Source: Phytohabitans rumicis
Lineage (GTDB): Bacteria; Actinomycetota; Actinomycetes; Mycobacteriales; Micromonosporaceae
NCBI RefSeq assembly: GCF_011764445.1
Contig: NZ_BLPG01000001.1
Location: 1,860,001-1,924,000 of the forward strand
Direction of reading: 5' to 3'
DNA length: 64,000 bases
The stretch's first letter is position 1. Each line of letters begins with the position of its first letter. Positions 18,411 to 56,567 of this stretch are shown in pieces. The position numbers and the translations under genes are program-made. The notes beneath the pieces were generated by a model. The model was not told the DNA's origin, ran no database searches, and was given only the letters and a program-made list of their open reading frames with translations.

Positions 18411-18495
18411 GCCGATCAAGGGCGAATGGTCGTGCTTTGATCTCCGATCCGCGGCCGTTTGCCCTTGATCGGCGCGGAATTCCTTGATCGGCGCA
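18411..18495. repeat. TTGATC palindromic repeat, copy 1
   Basis: The inner arms begin CCGATCAAGGGC (18412 onward) and end GCCCTTGATCGG (18474), with three transition mismatches over 21 bp. The apex holds TTTGATCTCC. An outer right half TCCTTGATCGGCGC follows at 18481-18494. Same family as 19901, 31984, 49527, 49931 and 56463. Located between bldD and the convergent gene ending at 18697. Confidence 0.85.
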
Positions 18496-18564
18496 CGCTG
18501 GGTGGGGCCGGCTGGCGGCATGCTGGGCTCAGCCCGCGCGGTGCGCGGCATAGCCGGCACGATC

Positions 18565-18604
18565 GTGGTGAGTAATTGCCCCTGGCGGGGCAATTACTCA
18601 CCAC
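18565..18604. terminator. Perfect 18 bp hairpin, GTGAGTA family, possible bidirectional terminator
   Basis: Arm GTGGTGAGTAATTGCCCC (18565-18582), loop TGGC, and a perfectly complementary arm at 18587-18604. It lies between bldD and a convergent gene, so it is placed to stop both transcripts. There is no T tract, as is common for terminators in high-GC actinomycetes. It shares GTGAGTA with the hairpins at 32111, 49717 and 57638. Confidence 0.6.
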
Positions 18605-18696
18605 AGTCACTCCCGCCCCTCCGCTCCGCGCCCTCGGCCGCCCGCACCCGTCTCCCCCGTCGATCAAGGGCGCAGAGAGTGCGAAGCGTGGGTGGG

Positions 18697-19485
18697 TTAG
18701 GGCTGGAGGCGCCACTGCGAGGGCGTGCCGTCGGACATGGAGCCGTCGTCGAAGCGGGTCACCGCCGGCGCCGGCCACCAACCGTCCGGGAACGCTTCGT
18801 GGTCCTCCAGCCGGCCGCGCAGCGTCGTGATCGTGTCGCTGACCCACTCGATGAGCGCCGCCGTGGCGGCCGCACCACCGGCGACGCCCGCGCACGCGGT
18901 GGCCACGCAGGTGGTCGCGAGGATGACGGCGGCCGGCGTGCCCACGCCGGAGCCGACGGCGATCCCGGCGCCGATCAGCTGGACCAGCGCCGAGGCGAGC
19001 GCGGCCGCGACGGCTGCCCACAGGCCGCAGATGCCGATCGCGAGCCGGGCGAGGGCCACGTCGACGTCGGCGCCGATGTCGCGCAGGGCGGTGAGCGCGG
19101 CGCGCTGGCGGGCCGCGGCCGCCTCGTACGCGCCGGCCGCCCGCCCCTGCCACTCGTACGCGGCGGCGAGGTGGTCTGGGTCGATCTTGCCGATGTGTTC
19201 GCTGAGCGGGCCGGCGAAGTCTTCGACCCAGCGCCGGCCGGTTTCCCAGACCCGCTCCGGCCGGCCCATCGGCTCGCTCAGCTCGGCGATCGCCGACAGC
19301 AGCCGCCGGACCAGGTCGCCGAAGGCGCGCACGAGGTCGAGCACCCCGTCGACCAGGAACGGCGCCAGCGCGCGGGCCGCCCGCACCGCGCCGTCGATCA
19401 CCCGCTGGGCGGCCCGCCGGACCTGCTCGGTCAGCCACCACACGCGGGCCATCAACTCGTCGAAAGCGGGCAGCGGCATAGGCAT
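18697..19485 (-). CDS. WXG100-like / type VII secretion-type protein with hydrophobic C-terminal half
   Basis: 262 residues, no firm family. The N-terminal 150 residues are Ala-rich helical with a WxG-type turn (EWQGRAAGAYEAAAARQRAAL, WQG at 112-114), as in ESX-secreted helical hairpins. Residues about 155-220 form two hydrophobic Ala/Gly/Val-rich segments that could insert in a membrane. The short tail is polar. The ATG at 19485 is chosen; GTG codons at 19488 and 19500 are alternatives. It follows the small gene 19494-19856, forming a pair like WXG100 partners. Function is inferred from shape and pairing only. Confidence 0.6.
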   Translation of the reverse strand: MPMPLPAFDELMARVWWLTEQVRRAAQRVIDGAVRAARALAPFLVDGVLDLVRAFGDLVRRLLSAIAELSEPMGRPERVWETGRRWVEDFAGPLSEHIGKIDPDHLAAAYEWQGRAAGAYEAAAARQRAALTALRDIGADVDVALARLAIGICGLWAAVAAALASALVQLIGAGIAVGSGVGTPAAVILATTCVATACAGVAGGAAATAALIEWVSDTITTLRGRLEDHEAFPDGWWPAPAVTRFDDGSMSDGTPSQWRLQP

Positions 19486-19493
19486 CGTCACGG

Positions 19494-19856
19494 CTACCAC
19501 GCCCCGAGCATGCGGTGCACGGCGTTGCGCTCGTCCCGCTCGTACCCGTCAGCGGCCGCGATCAGCGCGCCCGCCATCGCCGTGAACCCGGCCGCGCCCT
19601 GCGTCGCGAGCTCGGCCACTCGCCGCTGGAGCGCCGCGTACGTCTCCGGGAGGCCGACGATCTCGCTGAGGGCGCACATCTCGTTGGCGGTCAGGTCCAG
19701 CCGACCGACCACAGTGGACGCATGAGCGAGCGCGTCGGCCCAGTCGAGCCACTCGCGGGCGTCCGACCGCAGGGCTTCGATCGCGACCCGGATCTCCTCG
19801 TCGCTGGGCGAAAGCGGGGGCGGAGGCACGGTCGAGGACCGTACTCCCCCGGTCAT
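19494..19856 (-). CDS. Small helical WXG100/EspC-like partner protein
   Basis: 120 residues from ATG 19856, helical, Ala/Glu-rich. The central part (LRSDAREWLDWADALAHASTVVGRLDL) and the C-terminal AALQRRVAELATQGAAGFTAMAGALIAAADGYERDE look like the helical hairpin and tail of EspC/WXG100-type secreted proteins. The stop is at 19494, just before the start of its neighbour, so the two are co-transcribed and may form a heterodimer. No secretion ATPase is in the window. Hypothetical otherwise. Confidence 0.6.
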   Translation of the reverse strand: MTGGVRSSTVPPPPLSPSDEEIRVAIEALRSDAREWLDWADALAHASTVVGRLDLTANEMCALSEIVGLPETYAALQRRVAELATQGAAGFTAMAGALIAAADGYERDERNAVHRMLGAW

Positions 19857-19900
19857 GACCCGACAACCCCGAACAGCGGTCACGTGCCCGCCGCGCCTCC

Positions 19901-19985
19901 GCCGATCAAGGACTTCCGCGTCGATCAAGGGCGAATGGTCGTGGTTTGGAGATCAAAGCACGACCATTCGCCCTTGATCGACGGC
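19901..19985. repeat. TTGATC palindromic repeat, copy 2 (reverse orientation)
   Basis: The inner arms are a perfect 23 bp inverted repeat (19921-19943 with 19959-19981). The loop reads GTTTGGAGATCAAAG, the reverse complement of the loop in copies 1, 3, 4 and 6. Only the left outer half (GCCGATCAAGGA) is present. It lies upstream of the WXG-like pair. Confidence 0.85.
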
Positions 19986-19989
19986 AGAA

Positions 19990-20069
19990 AGGGCCCGGCA
20001 AGAGGGCCCGGCAAGAGGGCCCGGCGAAGAGGGCCCGGCGAAGAGGGCCCGGCGAAGAGGGCCCGGCGG
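19990..20069. repeat. Minisatellite of 13-14 bp units, six copies
   Basis: Units AGGGCCCGGCAAG (two copies) and AGGGCCCGGCGAAG (three copies) plus a final diverged unit, each with the palindrome GGGCCC. It directly follows repeat copy 2, downstream of nusB. Confidence 0.8.
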
Positions 20070-20096
20070 AGGGCGGCGCGAACGGCGGCGCGAGAC

Positions 20097-20531
20097 CTAG
20101 TGGTGGGTGAACTCTGCGATCCGGCCCAGCATGCCGTTGAGGAAGCGGGGCGAGTCGTCGGTGGACATCTGCTTGGCCAGCTCGACCGCCTCGGTGATGG
20201 CCACCGCGTCGTCGATCTCCTCGACGTACAGCAGCTCGTAGACGGCGATGCGGGCCAGGTTGCGGTCGACGACGGGCATCCGGTCGAGCGTCCAGCCCTC
20301 GGCGTAGCTGGCGATCAGCTCGTCGATCCGGTCCAGGTGTGTCGCCACGCCCTCGACCAGACCCATGGCGTACCCGAGGTGCTCGGGACGCGGCTGCTCG
20401 ATGCGCTTCACGTACGCGTCGAGCACCTCGCCCGGGGCCATGTCGCGCATGTCCGCCTCGTACAGGACGTCGAGCGCCCGCTTGCGCGCCTTGCGGCGGG
20501 CGGGCATCTGCGACTTGGGGGCCTCAGGCAC
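20097..20531 (-). CDS. nusB: Transcription antitermination factor NusB
   Basis: 144-residue all-helical RNA-binding protein that, with NusE, promotes rRNA antitermination. Typical motifs are [16 protein letters not shown] near the start and [24 protein letters not shown] in the second half. GTG start at 20531 overlaps the efp stop by eight bases, so efp-nusB is one operon, the usual actinobacterial order. Intact. Confidence 0.95.
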
Positions 20532-21081
20532 GGCCGAGGTAGCGCCCGTCGCGCGTGTCTACCTTGATCTTCTCGCCGGTGGTGATGAACAGCGGCACCT
20601 GCACGGTCGCGCCGGTCTCCACGGTGGCCGGCTTGTTGCCGCCGGTGGAGCGGTCGCCCTGCAGGCCCGGCTCGGTGTAGGTGACCTCCAGCACCACGCT
20701 GGTGGGCAGCTCGATGTAGAGCGGCACGTTCTCGTGGGTCGCCACGGTGGCCTCGGCCTCGGGCAGCAGGTAGCTCGCCGCCTCGCCGACGGTGCCGCCG
20801 GGCACGTGGATCTGGTCGTACGTCTGCAGGTCCATGAAGACGTAGTCGTCGCCGTCGGCGTACAGGTACTGCATGGTGCGCTTGTCGACGGTCGCGGTGT
20901 CGACCTTCGTGCCCGCGTTGAACGTCTTGTCGACCACCTTGCCGGACAGCACGTTCTTCAGCGTGGTGCGCACGAACGCCCCGCCCTTACCCGGCTTGAC
21001 GTGCTGGAACTCCACGACGGACCACAGCTCGCCGTCGAGGTTGAGGACCAGGCCGTTCTTCAGGTCGTTGGTGGTGGCCAT
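20524..21081 (-). CDS. efp: Elongation factor P
   Basis: Relieves ribosome stalling at proline stretches, relevant here because the window encodes very proline-rich proteins. 185 residues with the three beta-barrel domains. The functional loop [17 protein letters not shown] (about 30-45) carries the conserved lysine at its tip. Intact; ATG at 21081. Heads the efp-nusB pair; divergent from mptB. Confidence 0.96.
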
Positions 21082-21222
21082 TTCCTGCCTTGTTCTTCAT
21101 TCGTGGGGATTGACCCAGCAAGTCTACTGGTATCGGCGCGCGGACGCGGCGGACGCCCGCCGGTAACGAGCCGGCCAGCCGCCGGACGCATCGACGACAC
21201 CCACCGCTGACAGCCTGCACCC

Positions 21223-22538
21223 GTGTTGACCAAGTGCCGCGCTCTGGGCCTGGGGGGCTCGGTTCTCCTCGCGGCGGGTGGCCTGGCCGCCGGCGCCCTC
21301 CCCGGGAAGGGTTCGGCATCATGCGCCGCCACCCCGGCTGGGGCGTCGTCGTCGCGTACACGGGACTGGTCCTGCTGATCACGGCCTGGTGGCGCGTGGG
21401 CAAGCTCCTGCCCGACGTGACGCCGCGCGACCTGATCCGGACGCTCGTGCTCTGGGCCGCACCGCTGCTGCTGGCTCCCCCGCTGTTCAGCCGCGACGTC
21501 TACAGCTACCTCGCGCAGGGCGCCATGGTCGGCGCCGGCCTCGACGTGTACGAGCTCGGGCCGGCCTCCTACGGCGGGCCGCTCGCCGCCGAGGTACCGG
21601 CCATCTGGCAGCACACCCCGACGCCGTACGGGCCGCTCTTCCTGCTCGTGGCGACCGGCGTGGCCGCGGCAGCGGGCGCGCACCTCGCGGTCGGTGTCCT
21701 CGGCATGCGGCTGATCGCGGTGCTCGGCGTGGCGCTGCTGACCGCCGTGCTGCCCGGTCTCGCCCGCCGCTGCGGCGTCGACCCGGCCGCCGCCCTGTGG
21801 CTGGGCGCGCTCAACCCGCTCGTGCTGGCCCACCTCGTCGCCGGCGCGCACAACGACGCGCTGATGCTCGGCCTGCTCGTCGCCGGCCTGGCCGCCGCGC
21901 AGGCGCGCCGGCCGGGCGTGGGCGCCGCGCTCATCGCGCTCGCCGCGCTGGTCAAGGCGCCGGCCGCGCTGGCGTTGCTCTTCGTCGGCGGCACCCGGTG
22001 GCGCGCCACCATCCACGCGGCCGCCGTCGCCGCGGCCACCACCGTCGCGGTCACCGCCGTTTCCGGTCTCGGGTACGGCTGGGTCGGTGCCCTGAATACC
22101 CCGGTGTCCCCGGAGAACTGGTCGCCGACGAGCGTGCTCGGCCGGCTCACCGGCGCCCTGCTGGGCACCGCGCACGCCGTGCCCCTGTGGCGCTGGACCG
22201 GTCTCGCGGCGGCCGTGGCGGTCAGCGCGGTCCTGTGGCTGCGCCGCCGCGAGCTGGGCCCGGTGTACGCGGTCGGGCTGGGCCTCGGCGCGATCGTCCT
22301 GTTCGGACCGGCGCTGCGCCCGTGGTACCTGCTGTGGGGCCTGGTGCCGCTCGCCGCCGCCGCGCCGGACGGTCGGGTGCGGCAGGTGGCCGCGGCGGCG
22401 TGCGCGGGCCTCGCGGTCGTGGTGCTGCCCAGCGGCTTCGCACCGGGTGCCGAGCAGGTGGCGCAGGCGCTGCTCGGCGCCACCGTCGCGATCGCCCTCC
22501 TGCTCCCCCGCCGCCCGCTGATCCCGGCCACCTCATGA
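21223..22538 (+). CDS. mptB: Polyprenol-phosphomannose-dependent alpha-1,6-mannosyltransferase, MptB type (one apparent frameshift)
   Basis: GT-C membrane glycosyltransferase that adds mannose from a lipid carrier outside the membrane. About 438 residues and at least ten hydrophobic segments. The SRDVYSYLAQGAM segment near residue 90 and TPYGPLFLL are typical of this family. The first hydrophobic segment (VLTKCRALGLGGSVLLAAGG) is in another frame. Adding a base to the C run 21300-21303 joins it to REGFGIMRRHPGW and gives 439 codons. The GTG at 21223 is the start. The stop overlaps the next gene's ATG. It probably acts in cell-envelope mannan or lipoglycan synthesis. Confidence 0.75.
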
Positions 22539-25101: not shown

Positions 25102-25112
25102 CGCGGCCCAGC

Positions 25113-31487: not shown

Positions 31488-31937
31488 CTACGCTCGCCTC
31501 CGCTGCGCGTCTAGCCAGCCTTGCAGAATCTCCACCGCGGCGGCCTGGTCCACCACCGCGCGTTGGCGCTTTCCCCGCACGCCACGTTCGGCCAGCCTAC
31601 GGGTTGCCGCAACGGTGGACATCCTCTCGTCGGCCAGCCGGACCGGAACCGGGGCGATCGCCCGACCCAGGCGCTCGACATAGGCCCTGACCTGCACCGC
31701 CGCGGGTCCTTCCTTCCCGGCGAGTGTCACCGGCAACCCGACTACGACCTCCACGATTTGATACGCATCTACAAGTCGCGCAAGTTCAAAGATATCGGAA
31801 GGCACGGCATCAATATCCGCATTCAGGTCCCGCTTGAGGGTCACGAGCGGGGTCGCGAGGATCCCGTCGGGGTCACATATCGCCACCCCAACACGCACAG
31901 TGCCCACATCCACACCCATGCGTACCCCTCGCTCCAC
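31488..31937 (-). CDS. ruvX: Putative Holliday junction resolvase (YqgF/RuvX)
   Basis: 149 residues from GTG 31937; ATG 31919 (MGVDVG) is an alternative. RNase H-like fold with [19 protein letters not shown] at the start, [17 protein letters not shown] in the middle and [13 protein letters not shown] near the end. In E. coli this protein acts in rRNA processing. Genes ruvX-mltG-aroE follow alaS, as is standard in actinobacteria. A further-upstream reading frame into the repeat region is unlikely to be translated. Confidence 0.9.
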
Positions 31938-31983
31938 CAGTCCCCTCCGCAGCCGCTTTCCGCGCTCTCCGCGCGCTTTGTCC

Positions 31984-32088
31984 GCGCCGATCAAGGATTT
32001 CCGCGCCGATCAAGGGCAAATGGTCGTGCTTTGATCTCCGAACCGCAACCATTTGCCCTTGATCGGCGCGGTTTTCCTTGATCGGCGC
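31984..32088. repeat. TTGATC palindromic repeat, copy 3 (most complete)
   Basis: Shows the full nested design. Outer arms GCGCCGATCAAGGA (31984-31997) and TCCTTGATCGGCGC (32075-32088) are perfect. Inner 22 bp arms at 32002-32023 and 32049-32070 are also perfect. The apex holds TTTGATCTCCGAA. It lies between alaS and ruvX. Confidence 0.9.
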
Positions 32089-32110
32089 ACCGCCGCGGCG
32101 GGCGTCCCGG

Positions 32111-32168
32111 ACGTGAGTAGGGCGCCCCCATGCCCGCCATCGCGGGAACAGGGGCGCCCTACTCACGT
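32111..32168. terminator. 18 bp GTGAGTAGGG-family hairpin after alaS
   Basis: Arm ACGTGAGTAGGGCGCCCC (32111-32128), a 22-base loop and a perfect complement at 32151-32168. It sits 23 bases after the alaS stop on the transcribed strand, so it could terminate or trim the alaS transcript before ruvX. No T tract. Confidence 0.6.
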
Positions 32169-32191
32169 AACCGGGAGCCCGACGCCGGGCG

Positions 32192-34875
32192 TCATACGGA
32201 CGACAGGGACTTTTCCACCGCCACCAGCAGCGCGGGCGCCTCCGACGCGGGCAGGCCACCACCCTGGGCCAGGTCGGGGCTGCCCCGCCACGGCCGGACA
32301 GCGCGGCCTTGACCAGGTCGGACGCCGACACGCCCCGGCCGCGGGCCGCCGCGTTCACGGCCACCACAAGGGACGCCTTGCCGCCCGCGCGGGCCGACAC
32401 CGCGACCACCGCCGGCCGAGCCGCGTCGATCTTGCCGCGGATCTCCTGCGCCAGCGTGCGTACGTCGTTGCCGCCCGCGCCCTCCGGCGCCTCGGTGCCC
32501 ACGTACGCGATGCCGCCCACGTCCCGCGCCGACGAGGCCAGCGCCGCCGCTCCACCCAGGACGAGCTGGGCGCGCAGCTTCTCCAGCTCCTTCTCGGCGT
32601 CGCGCAGCTGCGTAACGGTCTGCTCGACCCGTTCGGCCACCTGGTCGTTCGGCACCCGGTAGAGCTCCGCGAGGCGGGACACCAGCAGGTGCTCGCGCGC
32701 CAGGTAGTCGAACGCGTCGATGCCCACCAGCGCCTCGACCCGGCGTACCCCGGAACCGATCGACGACTCGGAGAGGATCTTCACGAGGCCGAGCTGGCCG
32801 GAGCGGGCCACGTGCGTACCGCCGCACAGCTCCCGGGCGTAGTCGCCGACCTCGACGACGCGCACCTCGTCGCCGTACTTCTCGCCGAAGAGCGCCATCG
32901 CGCCCAGCCGCCGCGCCTCCGCCTGCGAAGTGATGAACGCGTGCACCTCCAGGTCGCCGAGGAGCACCTCGTTGACCTGCTGCTCCACGTCGTGCAGCAC
33001 GCTCGCCGAGACCGCGCCCGGGGTGTTGAAGTCGAAGCGCAGCCGGCCCGGCGCGTTCAGCGAGCCCGCCTGGGTCGCCGTCTCGCCGAGGAAGTTACGC
33101 ATCGTCTGGTGCACCAGGTGGGTGGCCGTGTGCGACCGGGAGATCGCCTTGCGTCGCCGCACGTCGATCTCCGCGTACCCGGTCTCGCCGCTGCGGACCT
33201 CGCCACGCACGACCCGCGCCTTGTGCACGATCAGGCCGGGAATCGGCTGCTGGACGTCGTACACCTCGACCTGGCCGTCGCCGACGGTGATCAGGCCGTA
33301 GTCGGGCTGCTGGCCGCCGCCCTCGGCGTAGAACGGGGTCACGTCCAGCACCAGCTCGATCTGCTCGCCCTCGCCGGCCGCCTGCAACGGCGTACCCCCG
33401 GCGCTCAGCAGCGACCGCACCCGGGCCTCCCGGGTGACCTCCTCGTAGCCGGTGAACTGGACCGGACCGCCGTCGTCCAGCGCCCCGCGGTACGCGGACA
33501 GGTCCGCGTGGCCGGTCTTGCGCGCGTGTGCGTCGGCCTTGGCCCGGGCCCGCTGGTCGGCCATCAGCCGCCGGAAGCCCTCCTGGTCGACCTGCAGACC
33601 CTGCTCGGCCGCGATCTCCAGGGTGAGGTCGATCGGGAAGCCGTACGTGTCGTGCAACTGGAACGCCTGGTCGCCGCTCAGCGACGCCCGGCCGGCGTCC
33701 TTCGCGGACGAGATGGCCGTGTCCAGGATCGTCGTGCCCGCCCGCAGTGTGGACAGGAACGCGTCCTCCTCCGCGTACGCGTACTGGGAGATCCGCTCGA
33801 AGTCGGTCGCCAGCTCCGGGTACGACGGCGCCATGCAGTCCCGCGCCACCGGCAGCAGCAGCGGCAGCGCCGGCTCCTGCCAGCCCAGCAGCCGCATCGA
33901 CCGGATCGCCCGGCGCATGATCCGCCGCAGGACGTAGCCGCGACCCTCGTTCGACGGGGTCACCCCGTCACCGATCAGCATCAGCGCGGTACGCACGTGG
34001 TCGGCGATCACCCGCAGCCGTACGTCGTCCGGATGCGACTGGCCCGCCGCTTGACCGGAGTGGGCGCCGTACCGCTTGCCGGTCAGCTCCGCCGCGGTGT
34101 CCAGGATCGGCCGGACCTCGTCGATCTCGTACAGGTTGTCCACGCCCTGCAGCAGCGACGCGACCCGCTCCAGGCCCATGCCGGTGTCGATGTTCTTCTG
34201 CGGCAGCGGGCTGACGATCTGGAAGTCTTCCTTGCTGCGCACGTCGGTGATCTCGTACTGCATGAAGACCAGGTTCCAGAACTCCAGGAACCGGTCCTCG
34301 TCCACGTCCGGCCCGCCATCCGGCCCGTACGCGGGGCCGCGGTCCAGGTACAGCTCCGAACACGGGCCGGCCGGGCCGGGGATGCCCATGTGCCAGTAGT
34401 TGTCCTTCTTGCCCCGGCGGACGATCCGCTCCATCGGCAGGCCGACGACCTTGTGCCAGATCTCGATCGCCTCGTCGTCGTCGAGATACGCGGTCGCCCA
34501 GATCTTGTCGCCGTCCAGGCCGAAGCCGCCCGCCGACACCGGCTTGGTGGCCAGGTCCCACGCCAGCGTGATGGCGCCTTCCTTGAAGTAGTCACCGAAC
34601 GAGAAGTTGCCGTTCATCTGGAAGAACGTGCCGTGCCGCGACGTCTTGCCGACCTCGTCGATGTCCGGCGTACGGATGCACTTCTGCACGCTCGTCGCCC
34701 GCTCGAACGGCGGCGTCCGCTGCCCCAGGAAGTACGGTACGAACTGCACCATGCCCGCGTTGATGAACAGCAGGTTCGGGTCGTCGATGGCGGGCAGCGG
34801 AGCGGAGGGCACCACCGAGTGCCCGTTGGCCTCGAAGTGGGCCAGGAAGCGCCGCTTGATCTCCGCCGTCTTCAT
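32192..34875 (-). CDS. alaS: Alanyl-tRNA synthetase, one apparent frameshift near the 3' end
   Basis: Charges tRNA-Ala. The catalytic domain (residues 1-240) begins [19 protein letters not shown]. The editing domain has [17 protein letters not shown] and the metal-binding [11 protein letters not shown], and a C-terminal oligomerisation (C-Ala) domain ends the protein. The frame breaks in the C run 32283-32286. One added base gives [32 protein letters not shown] and a TGA at 32192, 894 residues in all. ATG 34875 overlaps the stop of the small gene upstream. I treat it as intact. Confidence 0.95.
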
Positions 34876-45800: not shown

Positions 45801-47501
45801 ATGAACCGCCAGCGGTACATCTCCCTCTACGGGCCCACCACCGGCGACCGGATCCGGCTGGCCGACACCAACCTGCTCGTCGAGGTCGAAAAGGACCACT
45901 GCGCCGGCGGCGACGAGGCGGTCTTCGGCGGCGGCAAGGTGATCCGCGAGTCGATGGGCCAGTCCCGCGCCACCCGCGCGGAGGGTACGCCGGACACCGT
46001 CATCACCGGCGCGGTGATCCTCGACCACTGGGGCATCGTCAAGGCCGACATCGGCATCCGCGACGGCCGGATCGTGGCGATCGGCAAGGCCGGCAACCCG
46101 GACACCATGGACGGCGTCCACCCCGACCTGGTCATCGGGCCGGGCACCGAGATCATAGCCGGCAACGGCAAGATCCTGACCGCCGGCGCGATCGACTCGC
46201 ACGTCCACTTCATCTGCCCGCAGATCCTGGAAGAGGCCCTGGCCAGCGGGATCACCACGGTCATCGGCGGCGGCACCGGCCCGGCCGAGGGCACCAAGGC
46301 CACCACCGTCACGCCCAACGCCTGGCACCTGGCCCGGATGCTGGAGGCGATCGACTCCTGGCCGGTCAACGTGATGCTGCTCGGCAAGGGCAACACGGTC
46401 AGCGAAGAGTCCATGTGGGAGCAGCTGCGGGCCGGCGCCGGCGGCTTCAAGCTGCACGAGGACTGGGGCACCACGCCGGCCGCCATCGACGCCTGCCTGA
46501 GGGTGGCGGACGCGTCCGGCGTCCAGGTCAACATCCACACCGACACGCTGAACGAGGCCGGCTTCGTCGAGGACACCCTGCGGGCGATCGGCGGCCGCGC
46601 GATCCACGCGTACCACACCGAGGGCGCCGGCGGCGGGCACGCGCCGGACATCATCACCGTCGCCGCGCACCCCAACGTGCTCCCGTCGTCGACCAACCCG
46701 ACCCGGCCGTACACCCGGAACACGCTCGACGAGCACCTCGACATGCTGATGGTCTGCCACCACCTCAACCCGGCGGTGCCGGAGGACCTGGCGTTCGCGG
46801 AGAGCCGCATCCGGCCGAGCACGATGGCCGCCGAGGACGTGCTGCACGACCTCGGCGCGATCTCGATCATCGGCTCGGACGCGCAGGCCATGGGGCGGGT
46901 GGGCGAGGTCGTCCTGCGTACCTGGCAGACCGCTCACGTGATGAAGGACCGGCGCGGCGCGCTGCCCGGCGACGGCGCCGCCGACAACGTCCGGGCCCGC
47001 CGGTACGTCGCCAAGTACACGATCTGCCCCGCCGTCGCGCACGGCATCGAGGGCGAGGTGGGCTCGGTCGAGGCGGGCAAGCTCGCCGACCTCGTGCTGT
47101 GGGACCCGGCGTTCTTCGGCGTACGCCCGCACCTGGTCATCAAGGGCGGCATGATCGCGTGGGCGCAGATGGGCGACGCGAACGCCTCCATCCCCACCCC
47201 GCAGCCGGTGCTCCCCCGGCCCATGTTCGGCGCGTACGGCGCGGTGCCGGCCGCCACCAGCCTGGCGTTCGTGGCGCCGGCCGCGATCGAGGACGGCCTC
47301 GCGGCGCGCCTCGCCGTGGCCCGCAGGCTGGCCCCGGTCGCCGACGTCCGCGCGCGCGGCAAGGCCGACCTGCCGCTCAACGACGCGACACCGCGCATCG
47401 AGGTAGAGCCGGACACGTTCACGGTCCGCATCGACGGGGAGGTCATCGAGGCGCGACCGGTCACCGAACTGCCCATGGCGCAGCGGTACTTTCTGTTCTG
47501 A
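45801..47501 (+). CDS. ureC: Urease alpha subunit
   Basis: Catalytic subunit, 566 residues, intact. Nickel ligands: HVH at about 134-136, the carbamylated Lys217 in [10 protein letters not shown], the His of [10 protein letters not shown], the [12 protein letters not shown] segment, the catalytic flap VCHHLNP and Asp in [17 protein letters not shown] 45801 follows AGGAGG at 45791. The stop overlaps the ureF ATG by one base. Hydrolyses urea from the guanidine hydrolase or the Urt transporter encoded nearby. Confidence 0.98.
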
Positions 47502-48779: not shown

Positions 48780-49607
48780 AAGCCACCGCCCGGGTCGCGG
48801 CGGTCGCGGACTGCGGGCGCACGCGCCTGGTCACCCTCCGCTCGCAGACACCCCTTCTGGTACGCCGTACGGGTCCCCGGAACGCGAGAGGGGAGACCGA
48901 GGTGCACTTCGTCGGCGGCGCCGCCGGGCCGCTCGGCGGCGACCACCTGCGGATCGAGATCGAGGTCGGTCCCGGGGCACAGCTGTGCGTCCGCACGGTG
49001 GCCGCTTCCCTGGCGCTGCCCGGCGCCGGCGGCGAGCAGTCCCTGCTGGAGGTGCACGCCACCGTGGCCGCCGGGGCACCCTGCGCTGGCTGCCCGAGCC
49101 GCTCATCGCCGCCCGCGGCTGCGACCACGTGTCACGCTCCACTGTGGAGTTGGAGGAGGGCGCCCGGCTGGAGTGGCGCGAGGAACTCGTCTGCGGCCGC
49201 CACGGCGAGGAGCCCGGCGACGCCCGGCTGGACAGCACGGTGCGCCACGGCGGACGTACCCTCCTGCGCCAGGAACTGGCGGTGGGACCGCGTGCCCCCG
49301 CCTGGGACGGCCCGGCGGTCCTCGCCGGCGCCCGCGCCACCGGCTCCCTACTCCTCGTCGATCCCCTGTGGACCGGCAACCCCCACCGCCCGCGATCCTC
49401 GGCCCCACGGCCGCCCAAATGCCCCTCCCCGGCCCAGCCCTCCTCATCGTCGCCACCGGCACCCCCAAACCGTCCACACCCACCTCACCCCCTCCCCCTC
49501 CCCGCCGCGCTCCCCGCGCCCGCTTTCCCCGTCGATCAAGGGCAAACGGCTGCGGTTTGATCTCCAATCCGCGGCCGTTTGCCCTTGATCGACGGGGTTT
49601 CCCTTGA
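48776..49607 (+). CDS. ureD: Urease accessory protein UreD/UreH, two or more apparent frameshifts
   Basis: Scaffold for nickel loading of urease. ATG 48776 overlaps the ureG stop. The N-terminal [34 protein letters not shown], then [21 protein letters not shown] after adding a base at 49073-49076, and [22 protein letters not shown] after a second base at 49380-49384, reconstruct the family. From about 49470 the frame is doubtful and all three frames run into repeat copy 4. The true end is therefore uncertain by about 100 bases. Confidence 0.8.
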
Positions 49608-49615
49608 TCGGCGAG
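49527..49615. repeat. TTGATC palindromic repeat, copy 4
   Basis: Perfect 24 bp inner arms, 49527-49550 and 49574-49597, flank TGCGGTTTGATCTCCAATCCGCG. An outer right half CCTTGATCGGCG follows. It touches or overlaps the end of ureD and probably supplies its stop codon in this assembly. Confidence 0.9.
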
Positions 49616-49930: not shown

Positions 49931-50012
49931 CGATCAAGGACTTTCGCGTCGATCAAGGGCAAAGGGTCGTGGTTTGGAGATCAAAGCACGGCCGTATGCC
50001 CTTGATCGACGG
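49931..50012. repeat. TTGATC palindromic repeat, copy 5 (reverse orientation)
   Basis: 25 bp inner arms, 49947-49971 and 49987-50011, with three mismatches. The loop GTTTGGAGATCAAAG is as in copy 2. Outer left half CGATCAAGGA at 49931. Lies between urease and the DoxX gene. Confidence 0.85.
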
Positions 50013-50644: not shown

Positions 50645-50764
50645 CCGGTGAGGCGCGCCTAGGGTTCCGCCGCCCGTCACGTACGACGGGCGGGCTGGTC
50701 CGAGAGGCGCAGGCGCGGCGGCAAGCGTCGTCGCGTTCCACGGCGGGACAAAAGCCCGGGAGAC
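50645..50764 (+). ncRNA. Guanidine-I (ykkC) riboswitch
   Basis: Hallmark pieces occur in order: CTAGGGTTCCG (50659-50669), the GGTCCGAGAGG segment (50697-50707) and GGCGGGACAAAAGCCCGGGA (50742-50761). Between them are variable GC stems. A small ACAGCC/GGCTGT hairpin (50763-50781) follows and may belong to the expression platform. The aptamer class senses free guanidine and usually switches on guanidine export or breakdown genes, which fits the gene cluster starting at 50879. Outer limits are approximate. Confidence 0.9.
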
Positions 50765-50878: not shown

Positions 50879-51994
50879 GTGGGCCTTTACCACGATCACT
50901 ACGGACCCGAAGCCCGCTACGCCGTGGAGCGCGAGGCAGAGCTGCCCACCACCAAGTGGGAGGAGGAGGTCGCCCGCGGCCTGGAGCTCGGCCTGCCCGG
51001 CGCCGACTCCATCGTGGACAAGCGCATCCCCACCTTCTCACGCGGCGAACTGCCGCACTTCGCCGGCATCAACACGTTCCTCAAGGCGCCATACGTGGAG
51101 GACGTGCGCCGCTGCGGCGAGTACGACGTCGCGGTGCTGGGCGCCCCGTTCGACGGTGGCACGACGTACCGCTCAGGCACGCGCTTCGGGCCGCAGGGGA
51201 TCCGCAAGATCTCGGCGCTCTACGGCCCGTACTCGTTCGAATTGGGTGTCGACCTGCGCGAGTCGATCACGATCGCCGACCTCGGCGATGTCTTCACCAT
51301 CCCGGCGAACATCGAGAAGACGTTCGACCAGATCTCCAAGGCGGTCGCCCACGTGTACGCCTCGGGCGCGTTCCCGGTGGTGCTCGGCGGCGACCACTCG
51401 ATCGGCTATCCCACCGTGCGCGGCGTGGCCCAGCACCTGAACGGCAACCTGGGCATCATCCACTTCGACCGGCACGTCGACACCCAGGAGACCGACCTCG
51501 ACGAGCGGATGCACACCACGCCGTGGTTCCACGCCACCGACATCCCCAACGTCCCGGCGAAGAACCTGGTGCAGATCGGCATCGGCGGCTGGCAGGCGCC
51601 CCGCCCCGGCGTCAAGGTGGGCCGGGAGCGCGGCACGACCATCATGACGGTCACCGACTGCGTGGAGATGGGCATCGAGGCCGCCGCTGAGAAGGCGCTC
51701 GAGGTGGCCTGGGACGGCGCCGACGCGGTGTGGTTGTCGTTCGACGTGGACTGCCTGGACGCCGCGTTCGTGCCCGGCACCGGCTGGCCCGAGCCGGGCG
51801 GCTTCCTGCCCCGCGAGGTGCTCAAGTTCATCCAGCTCATCGCCGAGAAGCCGCTGGCCGGCATCGAGGTCGTGGAGTGCTCGCCGCCGTACGACAACGC
51901 CGAGATCACCTCCCTCATCGCCACCCGGGTCATCTGCGACACGCTCGGCTGCCTGGTCCGGGCGGGTCACCTCCCCCAGAGGAGCAAGTCATGA
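50879..51994 (+). CDS. Agmatinase-family ureohydrolase, probable guanidine hydrolase (GdmH type)
   Basis: 371 residues from GTG 50879, with GGAGG at 50868. Metal-binding motifs of the arginase superfamily: VLGGDHSIGYP (about 167-177), HFDRHVD (about 195-201) and LSFDVDCLDAAFVPGTGWPEPGGFLP. The second motif reads DRHVD instead of the usual DAHxD. I recall this in cyanobacterial guanidine hydrolase, but could not check it. The riboswitch upstream and a urease operon next door argue for guanidine to urea plus ammonia, not agmatine. Guanidine hydrolase is a nickel enzyme; no hypAB genes are in the window. ATGA overlap with the next gene. Confidence 0.85.
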   Translation: MGLYHDHYGPEARYAVEREAELPTTKWEEEVARGLELGLPGADSIVDKRIPTFSRGELPHFAGINTFLKAPYVEDVRRCGEYDVAVLGAPFDGGTTYRSGTRFGPQGIRKISALYGPYSFELGVDLRESITIADLGDVFTIPANIEKTFDQISKAVAHVYASGAFPVVLGGDHSIGYPTVRGVAQHLNGNLGIIHFDRHVDTQETDLDERMHTTPWFHATDIPNVPAKNLVQIGIGGWQAPRPGVKVGRERGTTIMTVTDCVEMGIEAAAEKALEVAWDGADAVWLSFDVDCLDAAFVPGTGWPEPGGFLPREVLKFIQLIAEKPLAGIEVVECSPPYDNAEITSLIATRVICDTLGCLVRAGHLPQRSKS

Positions 51995-52983
51995 AGAGAT
52001 TCCTCGCCGCCGCGGCGGCGCTCACATTGCTGACCGCATGCGGCTCGTCGGACGGCGACGACGCCGCCGAGGCCGGCCAGCCGACGACGGTACGGGTGGG
52101 CTTCAGCGCCTGGCCGGGCTGGTTTCCCTGGCAGGTGGCCCAGGAGCAGGGCCTGTTCGCCAAGAACGGCGTGACGGTCGAGCTGAAGTACTTCGACAGC
52201 TACACCGACAGCCTCACCGCCCTGTCCACCGGCAACCTGGACGCCAACAGCCAGACCCTCAACGACACGCTCTCCTCGGTCAGCGGCGGCGCGAAGCAGA
52301 CCGTCGTGCTGGTCAACGACAACTCGACCGGCAACGACCAGATCATCGCCCGGCCCGGCATCGACTCGGTGGCCGATCTGAAGGGCAAGACGGTGGCCGT
52401 CGAGCAGGGCACCGTCGACCACTACCTGCTGCTGCTCGCGCTGCAGAAGGCCGGACTGTCCGAACAGGACGTCACCGTCAAGGCGCTGCTGACCGACGCG
52501 GCCGCCGCCGCGTTCCTGGCCGGGCAGGTGGACGCGGTGGGCGCGTTCGCCCCGTTCACCACGACGGCGCTGGGGCTGGCCGGCAGCAAGGCGATCGCGA
52601 CCTCCGCCGACTTCCCCGGCGCGATCCCCGACCACCTGGTCTTCGAGGCCGACTTCGTCAAGGACCACCCGAAGGAGGTCCAGGCGATGGTGGACACCTG
52701 GTTCGACACGCTCGCGTGGATCAAGGACAACCCCGCCGCGGCCGTCGGCATCATGGCCAAGAAGGGCGGCGTCAGCGACGCCGACTACAAGAGCTACGAC
52801 GCGGGTACGACGATCTTCACGCGCGAGCAGAACCTCGCCGCGTTCGAGTCCGGTCAGACGCCGGCCAACCTCGACTTCCAGGCCAAGTCGATCGCCAAGT
52901 TCCTGGTCGACGCCAAGCTGGTCGACGAGGAGCCGCCGCTGGACGGCCTGCTCGACGCCACGTTCGTCAAGGCAGCTACGTGA
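51991..52983 (+). CDS. ABC transporter substrate-binding lipoprotein (NMT1/THI5-like)
   Basis: 330 residues. Signal peptide with lipobox LTLLTAC, lipidated at Cys about 18. The NMT1/SsuA-type fold shows VGFSAWPGWFPWQVAQEQGLFAKNGVTVELKYFDSYTDSLTALSTGNLDANSQTL, and VAVEQGTVDHYLLLLAL. Classical ligands of this family are nitrate, sulfonates and pyrimidine precursors. The riboswitch-led operon suggests guanidine or a guanidinium compound here. Coupled to the genes on both sides by overlaps. Confidence 0.88.
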   Translation: MKRFLAAAAALTLLTACGSSDGDDAAEAGQPTTVRVGFSAWPGWFPWQVAQEQGLFAKNGVTVELKYFDSYTDSLTALSTGNLDANSQTLNDTLSSVSGGAKQTVVLVNDNSTGNDQIIARPGIDSVADLKGKTVAVEQGTVDHYLLLLALQKAGLSEQDVTVKALLTDAAAAAFLAGQVDAVGAFAPFTTTALGLAGSKAIATSADFPGAIPDHLVFEADFVKDHPKEVQAMVDTWFDTLAWIKDNPAAAVGIMAKKGGVSDADYKSYDAGTTIFTREQNLAAFESGQTPANLDFQAKSIAKFLVDAKLVDEEPPLDGLLDATFVKAAT

Positions 52984-53819
52984 CGCTCGTGGCCGCCCCG
53001 GCTCCGCCCCGCTCGCTCCCGCGCCGCAGGCCGGCGCGGGCGGGCGGGCTGTGGGGCATCCGTACGCCGATCTCGCGGCCCGCCCGGTGGACACTGACCG
53101 TGCTGTCGGTGACCGTCCCGCTGGCCGCCTGGCAGGTGCTCAGCATGGTCATCGACGGGCGGCCGGACTTCCTGCCGGGCCCGCTCGAAGCGTTCGCGGC
53201 GGGCGTGGAGATGGCCCGCGACGGGCAGCTGCTCACCGACGCGTGGGCCACCGTGCGGCGGGTGCTGGAGGGCTTCGGGCTGGCGGTGCTGGTGTCGGTG
53301 CCGCTGGGCATCCTGATGGGCAGCTTCCCGGCCGGGCAGGCCGCCCTCGAACCGCTCGTCGGGCTGCTGCGCTACCTGCCGGCCAGCGCGTTCATCCCGC
53401 TACTGATCATCTGGCTGGGCCTGGGCGAGCCGTCCAAGGTGGCCCTGCTCTTCCTCGCCGCGTTCTTCTTCAACACGCTGATGACCGCCGACGCCGTACG
53501 GCAGGTGCCCGCCGCGCTGATCGACGTGTCGTACACGCTGGGCGCCCGGCGGGGCGAGGTGCTGCGCAAGGTCATCGTCCCGTACGCCCTGCCCGGCATG
53601 ATCGACTCGGTACGCGTCAACGCGGCCGCCTCGTGGAGCTTCGTGGTCGTCGCCGAGCTGATCGCCTCCGAGTCGGGGCTCGGCTACCGCATCGTCCGGG
53701 CGCAGCGGTTCAACCAGATCGACCGCATCTTCGCCGTACTCGTGGTCATCGCTCTTATCGGACTGACGATCGACCTGATGTTGCGGCTGGCGCGCGACCG
53801 GGTGGGGAGGTGGGTGTGA
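52980..53819 (+). CDS. ABC transporter permease (SsuC/TauC type)
   Basis: 279 residues, six or so hydrophobic segments, starting after a basic Pro/Arg-rich N-terminus of about 35 residues. The binding-protein-dependent permease loop with EAA-like motif is near 180: DVSYTLGARRGEVLRKVIVPYALPGMIDSVR. GTG 52980 overlaps the previous stop and its own stop overlaps the ATPase GTG. Imports the ligand caught by the lipoprotein. Confidence 0.9.
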   Translation: MTLVAAPAPPRSLPRRRPARAGGLWGIRTPISRPARWTLTVLSVTVPLAAWQVLSMVIDGRPDFLPGPLEAFAAGVEMARDGQLLTDAWATVRRVLEGFGLAVLVSVPLGILMGSFPAGQAALEPLVGLLRYLPASAFIPLLIIWLGLGEPSKVALLFLAAFFFNTLMTADAVRQVPAALIDVSYTLGARRGEVLRKVIVPYALPGMIDSVRVNAAASWSFVVVAELIASESGLGYRIVRAQRFNQIDRIFAVLVVIALIGLTIDLMLRLARDRVGRWV

Positions 53820-54598
53820 CCGCCGTACTGGAGCTCGCCGGCGTCGGGAAGGAGTTCGCGCGGCGCGGCGGCGCGGTCCGTGCCCTGGAGGGGATCGACC
53901 TGACCGTGCCGCGCGGGCAGTTCGTGTGCATGGTCGGCGCCAGCGGCTCCGGCAAGTCCACGCTGCTGTCCCTGGTCGCCGGCCTGGCCCGGCCGTCCAC
54001 CGGCGAGGTACGCCTCGACGGGCAGCCGGTCACCGGCCCGGGCCCCGACCGCGGCCTGGTCTTCCAGCAGGGTGCGGTGTACCCGTGGCGGACCGTCGAA
54101 CGCAACATCGGCTTCGGCCTGGAACTGCTCCCCATCGGCCGGGCCGAACGGGAGCGCCGGATCGCCTGGTACCTCGCCGAGACCGGCCTGACCGACCTGC
54201 GCCACGCCCTGCCCAAGCAGCTGTCCGGCGGTCAGCGCCAGCGGGTGGCGATCGCCCGCGCGCTGGCCTGCGAGCCGGACGTGCTGCTGCTGGACGAGCC
54301 GTTCGGCGCCCTCGACGTGCAGACCAAGGAGGACATGCAGCTGTTCATCCGGCGGGTGTGGCAGGACACCGGCACCACCGTCCTGATGGTCACGCACGAC
54401 GTGGAGGAGGCGGTGTTTCTCGGGCAGCGGGTGGTGGTGCTCGCCAGCGACCCGGGGCGGGTCGCCGCGGATCTGCCCGTCAACATTCCAACCGAACGTG
54501 AACTGTCGGCAAAACGACTCCCCGAATTCCTCTCCCTACGTGCCGAAATCGAGGACCTGGTACGCGCATATCACCTGCGCCACCAGGAAAAACTCTAA
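53816..54598 (+). CDS. ABC transporter ATP-binding protein (SsuB/TauB type)
   Basis: 260 residues. Walker A VGASGSGKSTLL near 40, Q-loop VFQQGAVYPWRTV, signature LSGGQRQRVAIARAL near 140, Walker B VLLLDEPFGALD and the switch His in VTHDVEEA. Last gene of the riboswitch-led four-gene operon. GTG 53816 overlaps the permease stop. Confidence 0.92.
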   Translation: MTAVLELAGVGKEFARRGGAVRALEGIDLTVPRGQFVCMVGASGSGKSTLLSLVAGLARPSTGEVRLDGQPVTGPGPDRGLVFQQGAVYPWRTVERNIGFGLELLPIGRAERERRIAWYLAETGLTDLRHALPKQLSGGQRQRVAIARALACEPDVLLLDEPFGALDVQTKEDMQLFIRRVWQDTGTTVLMVTHDVEEAVFLGQRVVVLASDPGRVAADLPVNIPTERELSAKRLPEFLSLRAEIEDLVRAYHLRHQEKL

Positions 54599-54715
54599 AC
54601 TCGAACCGTCGTCATCGGTGCATCGGCCGATGCCTCGCCGTACGGATCTGGGATGGCCCACCTCCTGAACAAATGGTGGAGTGGTCATGCTGCGGGGTAG
54701 CACGGGAGGAAAAGC

Positions 54716-56460
54716 GTGGGTTCGGAGGGGTACGTCGTCGGGGGCGGTACCGGCTCCATTCGGTGCTAGGCACCGGGGCATGGGAGTCGTGTGGCGCGCG
54801 TTCGACCAACGCCTGTCTCGCTGGGTCGCGGTCAAGGAGATCCGCTTCAACCAGCCGATGACGTCGCAAGAGCGCGAAGAGGTCAAGCAGCGGGCGATGT
54901 TCGAGGCGCTCAGCGCCGGCCGTCTCGTCCACCCCAACGTCGTGGCGATCTACGACACCGTCGACGACGACAACCGGCCGTGGGTCGTGATGCGCCTGGT
55001 CGAGGGGCGCTCGCTGCGGGACACCATCAGCCAGGACGGCCCGCTCGACCCGCAGACCGCGGCCCGACTCGGCCTCGGCCTGCTCAACGCGCTCGACGCC
55101 GCGCACGCCGCCGGCATAGTGCACCGCGACGTCAAGCCGTCCAACGTGCTCATGCTCCCCGACGGGCGGCCGCTGCTGAGCGACTTCTCCATCGCCACGG
55201 TCGTCGGTGACCGCGTCCCCATCCGGGGCGGCGCGGTGATGGGCAGCCCCGGGTACGTCGCCCCCGAGCGGCTGCACGGCAGGGAGGGCGGCACCGCGTC
55301 CGACCTCTTCGGGCTCGGCGCCACCCTCTTCTACGCGGTGGAGGGCATCGGGCCGTTCGCCCGCAACGACGCGCTCGCCTGCCTCATCGCCACCGTCTGC
55401 GAGCCGCACCCCGGCCGCTGCGCGCCGGCCCGCTCACCGCCGTCATCGACGGCCTGCTGGCCAAGGACGAGGACGACCGGCTTGACTCGGCCGGCGTCCG
55501 GGTCGGGCTGGCCAACGCGGCCCGCCCGCGCCCGCGCGGCGTCTACCGGGTACCGATGAACTCCCGGCGGGCGTACATGCCGTACCGCGCGGTGGCCACT
55601 CCACCGTGGCCGGTCGCGGCCCCGACCATCGCCACGGAGAGCAACTCGCGCGGCCCGTCGCGCCGGCGGGTCGCCATCGTGACCGCCAGCGCCGCCCTGC
55701 TCGTCCCGCTGGCCGCCGCCGTCGCCAGCATCGGCGGCGGATCGGGCCCCGGTATCGGCCGGGCCGACGCCGCGATCCAGCAGCCCGCGCCGCCCGGCAC
55801 CGGCTCGGCCACGGCCCCGCCCGGCGCCCGGCGCGCGCTCCGGCCCGACGTCGTCTCGACGACGTTCTCGACCGCGCCCGACGACGCCGACCGGCCGATC
55901 GGCGGCCTGGCGACCGACCCCGTCGCCGGCACCACCCCGACCGGCGGCACGTCCACCGCGCCCAGCGGGGGCGGCGGCGGCGGCCAGACGGGTACGACGG
56001 AAGCAACGCCACCCGCCGCCGAGGTCACCGGCCTGTCCGTGAACGTGTCCGTCGACGAGACCGCCTGCACGTACTCGGCCTCGGCCACCGTCACCGTCTC
56101 CGCGGCGACCACCGTGACCTACCGGGTGACCTGGACCGACGGCTCCAGCGGCACGTCCAGCACGGAGTTCACGGCCGCCGGCAGCGGTGCCCTGGCCGTA
56201 CCGTCCAACGTGGCGCACGCCGCCGGCCCGGTGTGGGTCCAGGTCGAGGTCGTGTCCCCGACCGCGCTCACCCAGCGCGCCGGCGCCACGCTGCCCGACT
56301 CCTGCGACCCCACCGCGCCGACGACCCCACCCTCGTCCCCGACCCGACCCCACGTCCGCGGCCCCACCGACCAGCAACCCCCCGCCGACTCCGCCGAAAC
56401 CCCACCCCCACCCCTGACCCGCTACCGCTCCGCGAGCCCCTCTCCGCCCACCCTTCTCCG
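54716..56460 (+). CDS. Membrane serine/threonine protein kinase, three or more apparent frameshifts, 3' end uncertain
   Basis: Restoring one base in each of the runs 54740-54744, 54775-54778 and 55409-55412 gives VGSEGYVVGG, RYRLHSVLGTGGMGVVWRAF, catalytic Lys41 (VAVKEI), HRDVKPSN near 137 and APE-type VAPERL. The metal motif is SDFSIA, Ser replacing the Gly of DFG. After the kinase come a linker, one membrane segment (VAIVTASAALLVPLAAAVASI), a Pro/Gly/Thr-rich stretch and a beta-rich outer domain with two Cys. GTG 54716 follows GGGAGG. The proline-rich 3' end is frame-ambiguous next to repeat copy 6. Confidence 0.75.
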
Positions 56461-56462
56461 CC

Positions 56463-56567
56463 CGTCGATCAAGGCTTTCTGCGTCGATCAAGGGCATACG
56501 GCCGTGCTTCGATCTCCAAACCACGACCATTCGCCCTTGATCGACGCACAAATCCTTGATCGGCGCG
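56463..56567. repeat. TTGATC palindromic repeat, copy 6
   Basis: 27 bp inner arms, 56480-56506 and 56522-56548, four mismatches. Outer halves CGTCGATCAAGG (56463) and TCCTTGATCGGCGCG. The loop contains TTCGATCTCCAAA. It lies between the convergent kinase and HxlR genes and overlaps the predicted HxlR 3' end. Confidence 0.85.

What the first reader, a model, noticed from the sequence alone, without database searches (positions are those of the whole stretch)
18411..56567. Six copies of a nested TTGATC palindrome: a probable undescribed dispersed repeat
Copies at 18411, 19901, 31984, 49527, 49931 and 56463 share one design: an outer half CGATCAAGGA, an inner arm CGATCAAGGGC with 21-27 bp pairing, an apex TTTGATCTCC, then the mirror arms. 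Four read forward, two reverse. All are between genes or at gene ends, none carries a gene, and most arm mismatches are transitions. About one per 11 kb would mean hundreds of copies per genome. It could be a MITE or REP-type element, a terminator, or a nucleoid protein site.
Basis: partly seen in the sequence, partly recalled or inferred. Interest (0 to 1): 0.72.

Follow-up and report, generated by a model that had tools for sequence, protein, structure and literature searches.

The report
GATC-bounded hairpin repeat at gene ends
A soil actinobacterium carries about five hundred near-identical copies of a hairpin-shaped DNA repeat, mostly just after genes, of a kind that differs from species to species and looks like an undescribed relative of known bacterial repeat elements that may mark where transcripts end.

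Summary
The genome (10.7 Mb, Micromonosporaceae, genus of Phytohabitans maris by inference) has 507 copies of a 59-bp hairpin with exact boxes and fixed spacing; reversed-pattern control 0. In 1.44 Mb read, 121 of 129 copies have no box mismatch, while 16 inner columns vary, mostly between two letters. Copies crowd between convergent genes (1.37 per kb, against 0.18 in divergent gaps) and follow a C-rich, G-poor lead-in rarely seen at other gene ends. One congener has 190 copies with arm pairs changed in step. Four congeners have 0, 0, 0 and 1 match; three of them have another GATC-bounded palindrome as top repeat. No Y1 transposase domain in six genus genomes, no target-site duplication, no Rfam match at the elements, no description found in print. 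Best reading: a REP-like, species-homogenised palindrome of a GATC-bounded superfamily, probably a two-way transcript-end module (C-rich, Rho-type tract plus hairpin). How it spreads and what reads it are unknown. Function is inferred; there are no RNA data.

The parts
18312..18412 (+). five extra CGATCAAGGGC boxes about 20 bp apart, leading into the first copy
18413..18471 (+). copy 1, 59-bp hairpin core
18482..18493 (+). 3' outer box of copy 1, CCTTGATCGGCG
19900..19911 (-). 3' outer box of copy 2
19922..19980 (-). copy 2, core, 117 bp from the nusB stop
19984..20063 (-). lead-in of copy 2, C-rich on the element strand and made of short tandem repeats
31988..31996 (+). 5' outer box of copy 3
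32007..32065 (+). copy 3, core, in the alaS-ruvX gap; the called alaS ORF (-) reads through it
32076..32087 (+). 3' outer box of copy 3
49460..49532 (+). C-rich lead-in of copy 4 (limits approximate, by eye)
49533..49591 (+). copy 4, core, first of an inverted pair
49602..49613 (+). 3' outer box of copy 4
49931..49939 (-). 3' outer box of copy 5
49950..50008 (-). copy 5, core, second of the inverted pair
56466..56474 (+). 5' outer box of copy 6
56485..56543 (+). copy 6, core, overlapping the 3' end of an HxlR-type gene (-)
56554..56565 (+). 3' outer box of copy 6

Best explanation
A REP-like dispersed palindrome, one member of a superfamily of GATC-bounded hairpins in Micromonosporaceae. SHOWN: a 59-bp hairpin (box CGATCAAGGGC, variable inner arm, unpaired GATCTC apex, mirror arm and box); a 3' outer box in register; a C-rich, G-poor lead-in read towards the hairpin; strong preference for gene 3' ends and convergent gaps; and a species-specific dialect whose arm pairs changed on both sides between two species. 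INFERRED: RNA from the upstream gene passes a C-rich, Rho-type loading tract and then a very stable hairpin that marks or protects the transcript 3' end. In convergent gaps, inverted pairs or two-sided C-rich flanks do this for both genes and stop transcription from running into the neighbour. A protein that reads the GATC boxes and apex, or a recombination or transposition enzyme not of the Y1 family, keeps the copies uniform within a genome; I did not identify it.
For: 507 exact 59-bp copies, control 0. Elements per kb of gap: convergent 1.37, codirectional 0.42, divergent 0.18. The 5' side is nearer its gene in 46 of 55 convergent and 29 of 31 same-strand codirectional cases. 60 nt after the stop: C 0.482, G 0.288 with element (99 ends) against C 0.355, G 0.338 (96 convergent) and C 0.341, G 0.333 (236 codirectional) without. 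C-over-G tract in 58 of 87 element ends against 10 of 80 and 33 of 235. RNA fold -82.2 and -79.9 kcal/mol, 0 of 200 shuffles as stable on either strand. Over 17 sequences from three species, 6 of 22 pairs change on both sides and 0 of 500 shuffles reach the covariation score. C-rich flanks recur around the same type of palindrome in other genera.
Against: No RNA data. The C-rich flank is also present at the 10 divergent and 21 opposite-strand copies. Within the own genome the arms do not covary except 13-47 and weakly 26-34; A-C mismatches are common (63, against 117 G-T) and at 18/42 outnumber G-T 37 to 27. Gene-end position could simply be where insertions are tolerated. At 18.2 kb a separate terminator-like hairpin exists, and other stems are as frequent with the element (25 of 87) as without (23 of 80). 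The GATCGTGGTA subfamily of three sister species lacks the C-rich flank (n=26). In codirectional gaps orientation is only 31 to 21. Regions read were partly chosen for hits.
Confidence: 0.42

Rival explanations
1. A mobile palindrome moved by an unknown, non-Y1 transposase or recombinase; gene ends are only where insertion is tolerated, and the hairpin is its single-strand substrate.
For: Species-specific amplification. Blocks present in G000 and missing in congeners, for example 249-304 against 22-71 bp. Inverted pairs flanking islands of other palindromes. REP-like position.
Against: No Y1 domain. No target-site duplication signal. Almost no decayed copies: 8 of 129 with 1-2 box mismatches, 0 with 3-4. 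111 of 121 cores distinct, with linkage mainly between neighbouring columns, not what a recent master-copy burst would give. No copy in an 841-kb stretch. In several gaps the congeners are as long as G000 or longer.
Confidence: 0.27
2. A double-stranded DNA site for a nucleoid, segregation or other chromosome protein whose specificity coevolves with the sites (dialects).
For: Invariant boxes and unpaired apex, fixed spacing, two-letter tolerance of the arms without pairing dependence inside one genome; half-sites share one consensus CGATCAAGGGCRWAYGGYCGYG.
Against: Pairing is kept between species by changes on both sides. Position is bound to gene 3' ends rather than to the replication map. 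No strand bias, 64 to 57. A large copy-free stretch.
Confidence: 0.17
3. An uptake-sequence-like word spread by biased transformation, as DUS/USS dialects (recalled family).
For: Hundreds of copies, species dialects, inverted repeats behind genes.
Against: A 59-bp fixed architecture is far longer than known uptake words (recalled); competence in this genus not tested. Lone boxes occur but were not analysed: 92 single boxes in 1.44 Mb.
Confidence: 0.05
4. Plain intrinsic terminators that have come to look alike.
For: Stable hairpins at gene ends.
Against: Selection for a terminator cannot by itself fix 22 box bases plus an unpaired apex in 507 copies. The core is followed by ACG, not a T tract. 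At 18.2 kb G000 has an ordinary hairpin as well as the element, and G005 has that hairpin without the element.
Confidence: 0.06

Closest known systems
GTAG REPs / BIMEs / REPINs with RAYT (TnpA-REP) transposases
   Same: High copy number, extragenic palindromes behind genes and between convergent genes, inverted pairs, species-specific families (PMC3733652 abstract and sections 6 and 15; PMC6006769 passages).
   Different: 59 bp instead of 20-40 bp; no GTAG/GGAG foot recognised outside a hairpin base; no Y1 transposase domain in the genus.
CGTC REPs (Di Nocera 2013, PMC3733652)
   Same: The authors say they lack a dedicated transposase; gene 3' ends; CGTC precedes the first GATCAAGG box in most copies here (CG in 58 and 59 of 59, T in 54 of 59).
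   Different: Those have 8-9-bp stems and 4-5-nt loops with one unpaired CGTC end; here the stem is 22 bp or more, CGTC is mirrored as GACG at the other end, and a GATCTC apex is conserved.
DNA uptake sequences of Neisseria and Haemophilus (recalled, no call)
   Same: Hundreds of copies, species dialects, inverted pairs behind genes.
   Different: Those are 9-12-bp words; here the unit is a 59-bp fixed architecture. Transformation in this genus was not tested.
MITEs (recalled)
   Same: Short, non-coding, inverted-repeat structure, gain and loss between species.
   Different: No target-site duplication signal; few decayed copies.
Rho-dependent terminators with a C-rich, G-poor loading tract (recalled; PMC9927376 abstract start in listing)
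   Same: C-rich, G-poor tract after the stop codon.

Membership tests
GTAG/RAYT REP | Y1 (PF01797) transposase in the genome | tested here: not met
   0 of 6 genus genomes at E <= 0.01; controls rang in 6 of 14 genomes
GTAG/RAYT REP | extragenic palindrome in over 100 copies, mostly at gene 3' ends | tested here: met
   507 copies; densities by gap type
GTAG/RAYT REP | unpaired GTAG/GGAG tetranucleotide at the foot of a 20-40-bp hairpin | tested here: not met
   the 59-bp core is flanked by paired CGT/ACG; GGAG occurs only in the apex, read on the other strand
CGTC REP | 8-9-bp stem, 4-5-nt loop, unpaired CGTC at one end | tested here: not met
   stem of 22 pairs, 15-nt apex region, CGT and ACG paired at both ends
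MITE | target-site duplication | tested here: not met
   120 copies scanned; best excess a 3-mer, 10 of 68 against 3.0 expected, among thousands of offset pairs; exact ends of the unit are not known
MITE | ends shared with an autonomous transposon | not tested
   no search for a full-length element with these ends was made
intrinsic terminator | hairpin followed by a T tract | tested here: not met
   ACG follows the core in 59 of 59 copies or GCG (column 60 A 47, G 12)
Rho-dependent terminator | C-rich, G-poor tract upstream | tested here: met
   58 of 87 element ends against 10 of 80 and 33 of 235
Rho-dependent terminator | loss of termination on Rho inhibition | not testable with these tools
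   needs RNA work
catalogued RNA family | match to an Rfam 15 model | tested here: not met
   two matches in the window, neither at an element
DNA uptake sequence | preferential uptake of DNA carrying the word | not testable with these tools
   needs a transformation assay

The most novel reading that the evidence does not exclude
Micromonosporaceae carry a superfamily of GATC-bounded hairpins that serve as sequence-addressed, two-way transcript-end modules (C-rich loading tract, hairpin, GATC apex). They are read by an unknown protein whose specificity changes drive genome-wide dialect switches: hundreds of copies change both arms in concert between species, without any REP transposase.
Probability: 0.25. 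Interest if true: 0.82.

Novelty: new variant of a known kind. Interest (0 to 1): 0.6.

Why it matters
GTAG REPs are ascribed to Y1 transposases and CGTC REPs are said to lack one (PMC3733652 abstract). Here is a larger and very uniform palindrome, about 500 copies, in a genus where I found no Y1 domain; either a new mobiliser or a host recogniser must account for the uniformity and for the coordinated change between species. If it ends transcripts, it gives a genome-wide, sequence-recognisable handle on transcription ends in high-GC actinomycetes, a group known for antibiotic gene clusters (recalled, no call).

Tried and rejected
RAYT/REP: no PF01797 match in 6 genus genomes. Target-site duplication scan: no clear signal; only the 12 best offsets were printed. 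Locus-specific extended pairing of the flanks, striking in single copies, vanished against cross-pairing of copies (51 copies: self -47.2, cross -48.2; 67 copies: self -44.1, cross -44.0). An apparent co-orientation with the upstream gene is largely forced by geometry in convergent gaps; in codirectional gaps it is 31 to 21, so I keep only the distance effect. Ten of 16 variable columns fall on every third base, which suggested coding, but columns 13, 23, 26, 34, 35 and 47 break it; left unexplained. Nested-insertion model (outer palindrome as target): no uninterrupted outer palindrome in 1.44 Mb. Plasmid and phage collections: no match, though near relatives of the own genome may be left out there. 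Paper searches gave no description of this repeat in what was listed; 28, 76, 77 and 80 matched 44, 399, 17 and 94 papers, of which the top 20, 12, 12 and 8 were listed. I opened PMC3733652 (in the lists of 69 and 77) and PMC6006769 (list of 69); no other paper was opened.

Dropped rows: one search used 120, 118 and 117 of 121 copies (sequence edge or a missing neighbour gene), 113 of 121 elements fell in the counted gaps. The regions were partly chosen where hits were already listed (about 1.9-2.7 Mb, 8.2-8.9 Mb, contig 2), so densities are not unbiased genome means. The gene calls are my own script's, without start-site validation.
Full report
OBSERVATION. Each is a 59-bp core: CGATCAAGGGC, a variable arm, an unpaired apex with GATCTC, the mirror arm, GCCCTTGATCG. 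A further CCTTGATC box lies 19 bp beyond, on the 3' side of the apex strand. In the 64-kb window, clusters of four or more GATCAA/TTGATC occur only at these six places. In the genome that holds the window (10,714,690 bases, 3 contigs) the box pair occurs 511 times, 507 of them at exactly 59 bp, against 0 for the same pattern read backwards.

WHERE IT COMES FROM. The closest named relatives of the window's aroB gene are Micromonosporaceae, first Micromonospora sp. CPCC 205371 (L046) and Phytohabitans maris (L047). The genus is therefore taken to be that of Phytohabitans.

ANATOMY IN NUMBERS. In 1.444 Mb of the own genome (regions partly chosen for hits) there are 121 canonical copies, 6 with one and 2 with two box mismatches, none with three or four; four further hits with five mismatches are unrelated sequence. 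Of 59 columns, 36 never vary in 121 copies and 16 vary in at least five copies, mostly between two letters; the nearly invariant inner columns show 12 changes in 2541 cells. 111 of 121 cores are distinct. Of 120 column pairs, 15 are linked at z > 4; the strongest are neighbours (34-36, 12-15, 23-26), with a few distant ones such as 23-39 at z 7.7. Among six mirror pairs only 13-47 (z 4.2) and weakly 26-34 (z 2.4) are linked. So boxes and apex are held strictly while the arms vary within narrow limits, mostly without regard to pairing inside one genome. The 3' outer box is present in 119 of 121, the 5' one in 52 of 121. A 106-nt stretch around copy 3 folds as RNA at -82.2 kcal/mol on one strand and -79.9 on the other, against means of -32.0 and -33.4 for 200 shuffles. 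On the apex strand, over four arm pairs in 121 copies, 294 cells are Watson-Crick, 117 G-T, 63 A-C and 10 other; at 18/42 A-C exceeds G-T, 37 to 27.

SURROUNDINGS. Per kb of intergenic DNA in gaps of at least 100 bp there are 1.37 elements between convergent genes (54 elements; 41 of 81 gaps hold one), 0.42 between codirectional genes (49; 43 of 298) and 0.18 between divergent genes (10; 9 of 146). The 5' side lies nearer its gene in 46 of 55 convergent cases, in 29 of 31 codirectional cases on the gene strand, in 10 of 21 on the opposite strand and in 7 of 10 divergent cases. The 60 nt after the stop are C 0.482, G 0.288 at 99 element-bearing ends, against C 0.355, G 0.338 (96 convergent) and C 0.341, G 0.333 (236 codirectional) without. 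A C-over-G excess of at least 0.2 over 50 nt is found in 58 of 87 element-bearing ends, 10 of 80 convergent and 33 of 235 codirectional ends without. The C-rich flank is present in all four gene-orientation classes, so it goes with the element rather than with the gene. Read inward it also occurs around G004 copies (n=11, C 0.43, G 0.33), around cousin palindromes of loci from genus g4 (L036-L045, n=11, C 0.54, G 0.20; the genus looks like Micromonospora, inference from size and copy number), around one copy of a third genus, and around the TTGATCAGGGA subfamily; not around the GATCGTGGTA subfamily (n=26 in three species) or control hairpins (249, 62 and 63 in three genomes; C 0.36).

RELATIVES. 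Exact 59-bp copies in the five congeners: G004 190, G002 one match without a palindromic inside, G001, G003 and G005 none. Of 200 family genomes, the own included, 5 match: G000, G004, G032 (3), and one chance-like match each in G002 and G041. A relaxed pattern over 397 genomes of the order matches 27, mostly in genus g4, with other arms and mostly 53-57 bp. G004 copies differ from G000 copies at arm pairs 17/43 and 18/42 on both sides. Over 17 sequences chosen from three species (10 G000, 6 G004, 1 G032), 6 of 22 pairs change on both sides and no shuffle of 500 reaches the covariation score; the structure was read from these sequences and two G004 rows were cut one base off register at the ends, so the paired percentage is only indicative. 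G001, G003 and G005 have as their top intergenic 10-mer GATCGTGGTA, which bounds a 48-bp palindrome; G002 has other repeats. Fixed-length GATC-bounded subfamilies of 47, 48, 50, 54-55, 57 and about 62 bp occur. GATC lies in the outer 16 nt of 58 of 223 remaining palindromes in G000, 14 of 36 in G001, 24 of 57 in G005, 13 of 25 in G003, 5 of 26 in G002, 0 of 9 in G004, 6 of 25 in Micromonospora loci, 9 of 49 in other Micromonosporaceae and 1 of 30 outside the family; the tetramer TCGA, commoner in these sequences, gives 14, 5, 5, 6, 1, 0, 3, 4 and 2. A GATCTCC-like apex recurs in some copies of genus g4 and Micromonospora. GATCATGAGGTT palindromes occur in 5 of 61 family genomes.

GAIN, LOSS AND AGE. 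A 264-kb stretch is syntenic with G001, G002, G003 and G005 at about 84% identity; 14 of its 16 elements could be compared with at least one relative, and a canonical counterpart is excluded because those genomes hold none, or one elsewhere. In several gaps G000 holds a block that the others lack: 249-304 against 22-71 bp; 365-398 against 35-57 in two relatives (1288 in a third); 288-296 against 64-169; and 692-792 against 145-243 for the inverted pair at 49.5-50.0 kb. In other gaps the relatives are as long or longer (for example 739 against 876). In an unrooted tree of six genomes (9670 columns) G000 and G004 lie together with support 1.0, G004 on the longest branch. G004 has an element at three of four resolvable shared gene ends: at the nusB end orientation agrees; in the alaS-ruvX gap the outer box agrees but the apex is turned; at the third the nearest G000 copy is turned. 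At the fourth G000 has no box, and a fifth site could not be resolved. At the nusB end all four other species keep a lone CGACGCCGATCAAGG, a relic or an insertion target. I lean to an old family with turnover; this is not settled. The listing shows no copy between 917,810 and 1,758,800 of contig 1; 80 kb sampled there has lower coding density (0.73) and GC (0.685) than most element-rich samples, though one of those has GC 0.696, and holds 10 convergent gaps without an element. Recently acquired DNA would look so (inference).

WHAT IT IS NOT. No Y1 transposase domain in six genus genomes, no duplication signal at the ends, no Rfam family at the elements of the window. It is not the local terminator-like hairpin at 18.2 kb, which G000 has besides the element and G005 has without it. 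It does not replace other hairpins: 25 of 87 element-bearing leaders have a stem of 8 or more, against 23 of 80.

MECHANISM. Gene-end position, C-rich lead-in on the incoming strand, a near-perfect hairpin, inverted pairs in convergent gaps and pairing kept between species fit a transcript-end module best. The strict conservation of the unpaired apex and outer boxes, and the change of hundreds of copies in step between species, demand a recogniser or a homogenising process that I could not identify. Shown: anatomy, copy number, position, composition, dialects, absence of Y1. Inferred: Rho loading, 3'-end protection, the recogniser.

LITERATURE. PMC3733652: abstract, sections 6 and 15 read; a word search in its main text found no actinobacteria, Micromonospora, Salinispora, Frankia or Streptomyces. 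PMC6006769: passages only. All other papers: search listings with abstract starts only. Searches gave no description of this repeat in what was listed; the library lacks most subscription journals.

Noticed in passing
element columns 12, 15, 18, 21, 33, 36, 39, 42, 45, 48: Ten of the 16 variable columns of the 59-mer fall on every third base; unexplained.
   Followed up: partly
window 31873-34875 (-): The called alaS ORF runs through the copy at 32007 and overlaps the ruvX ORF; similarity to congeners stops near 32226, so its last part looks specific to this genome.
   Followed up: no
window 18570, 32115, 49721; L257 13453-15072: Other palindromes (GAGTA...TACTC; in L257 also GATCTAGACGAG, GATCATGAAG and GATCTAGG types) lie beside or between elements, forming islands of several palindrome kinds.
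   Followed up: partly
L021 13659, L032 7979, L216 14313, L217 8682, L238 7792: A second, nearly invariant 50-bp palindrome GATCAAGGCGTCCTTCAAGTCGT..CGACTTGAAGGACGCCTTGATC, five copies in 1.44 Mb.
   Followed up: no
window 50648-50764 (+): Guanidine-I riboswitch (Rfam RF00442, 75.7 bits) upstream of an arginase-family gene at 50879-51994.
   Followed up: no
window 45942-46233 (-): Match to the 5' ureB sRNA family (RF02514, 80.3 bits) antisense to a called gene at 45801-47501; may reflect conserved coding sequence rather than an sRNA.
   Followed up: no
G000 contig 1, 917810-1758800: An 841-kb stretch without an exact copy, with lower coding density in the 80 kb sampled.
   Followed up: partly
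L016 12275, L024 4943, L180275 site (G000 C1:1960275) and others: Short tandem repeats next to many elements, some including the stop codon of the upstream gene or eleven copies of a 16-bp unit.
   Followed up: no
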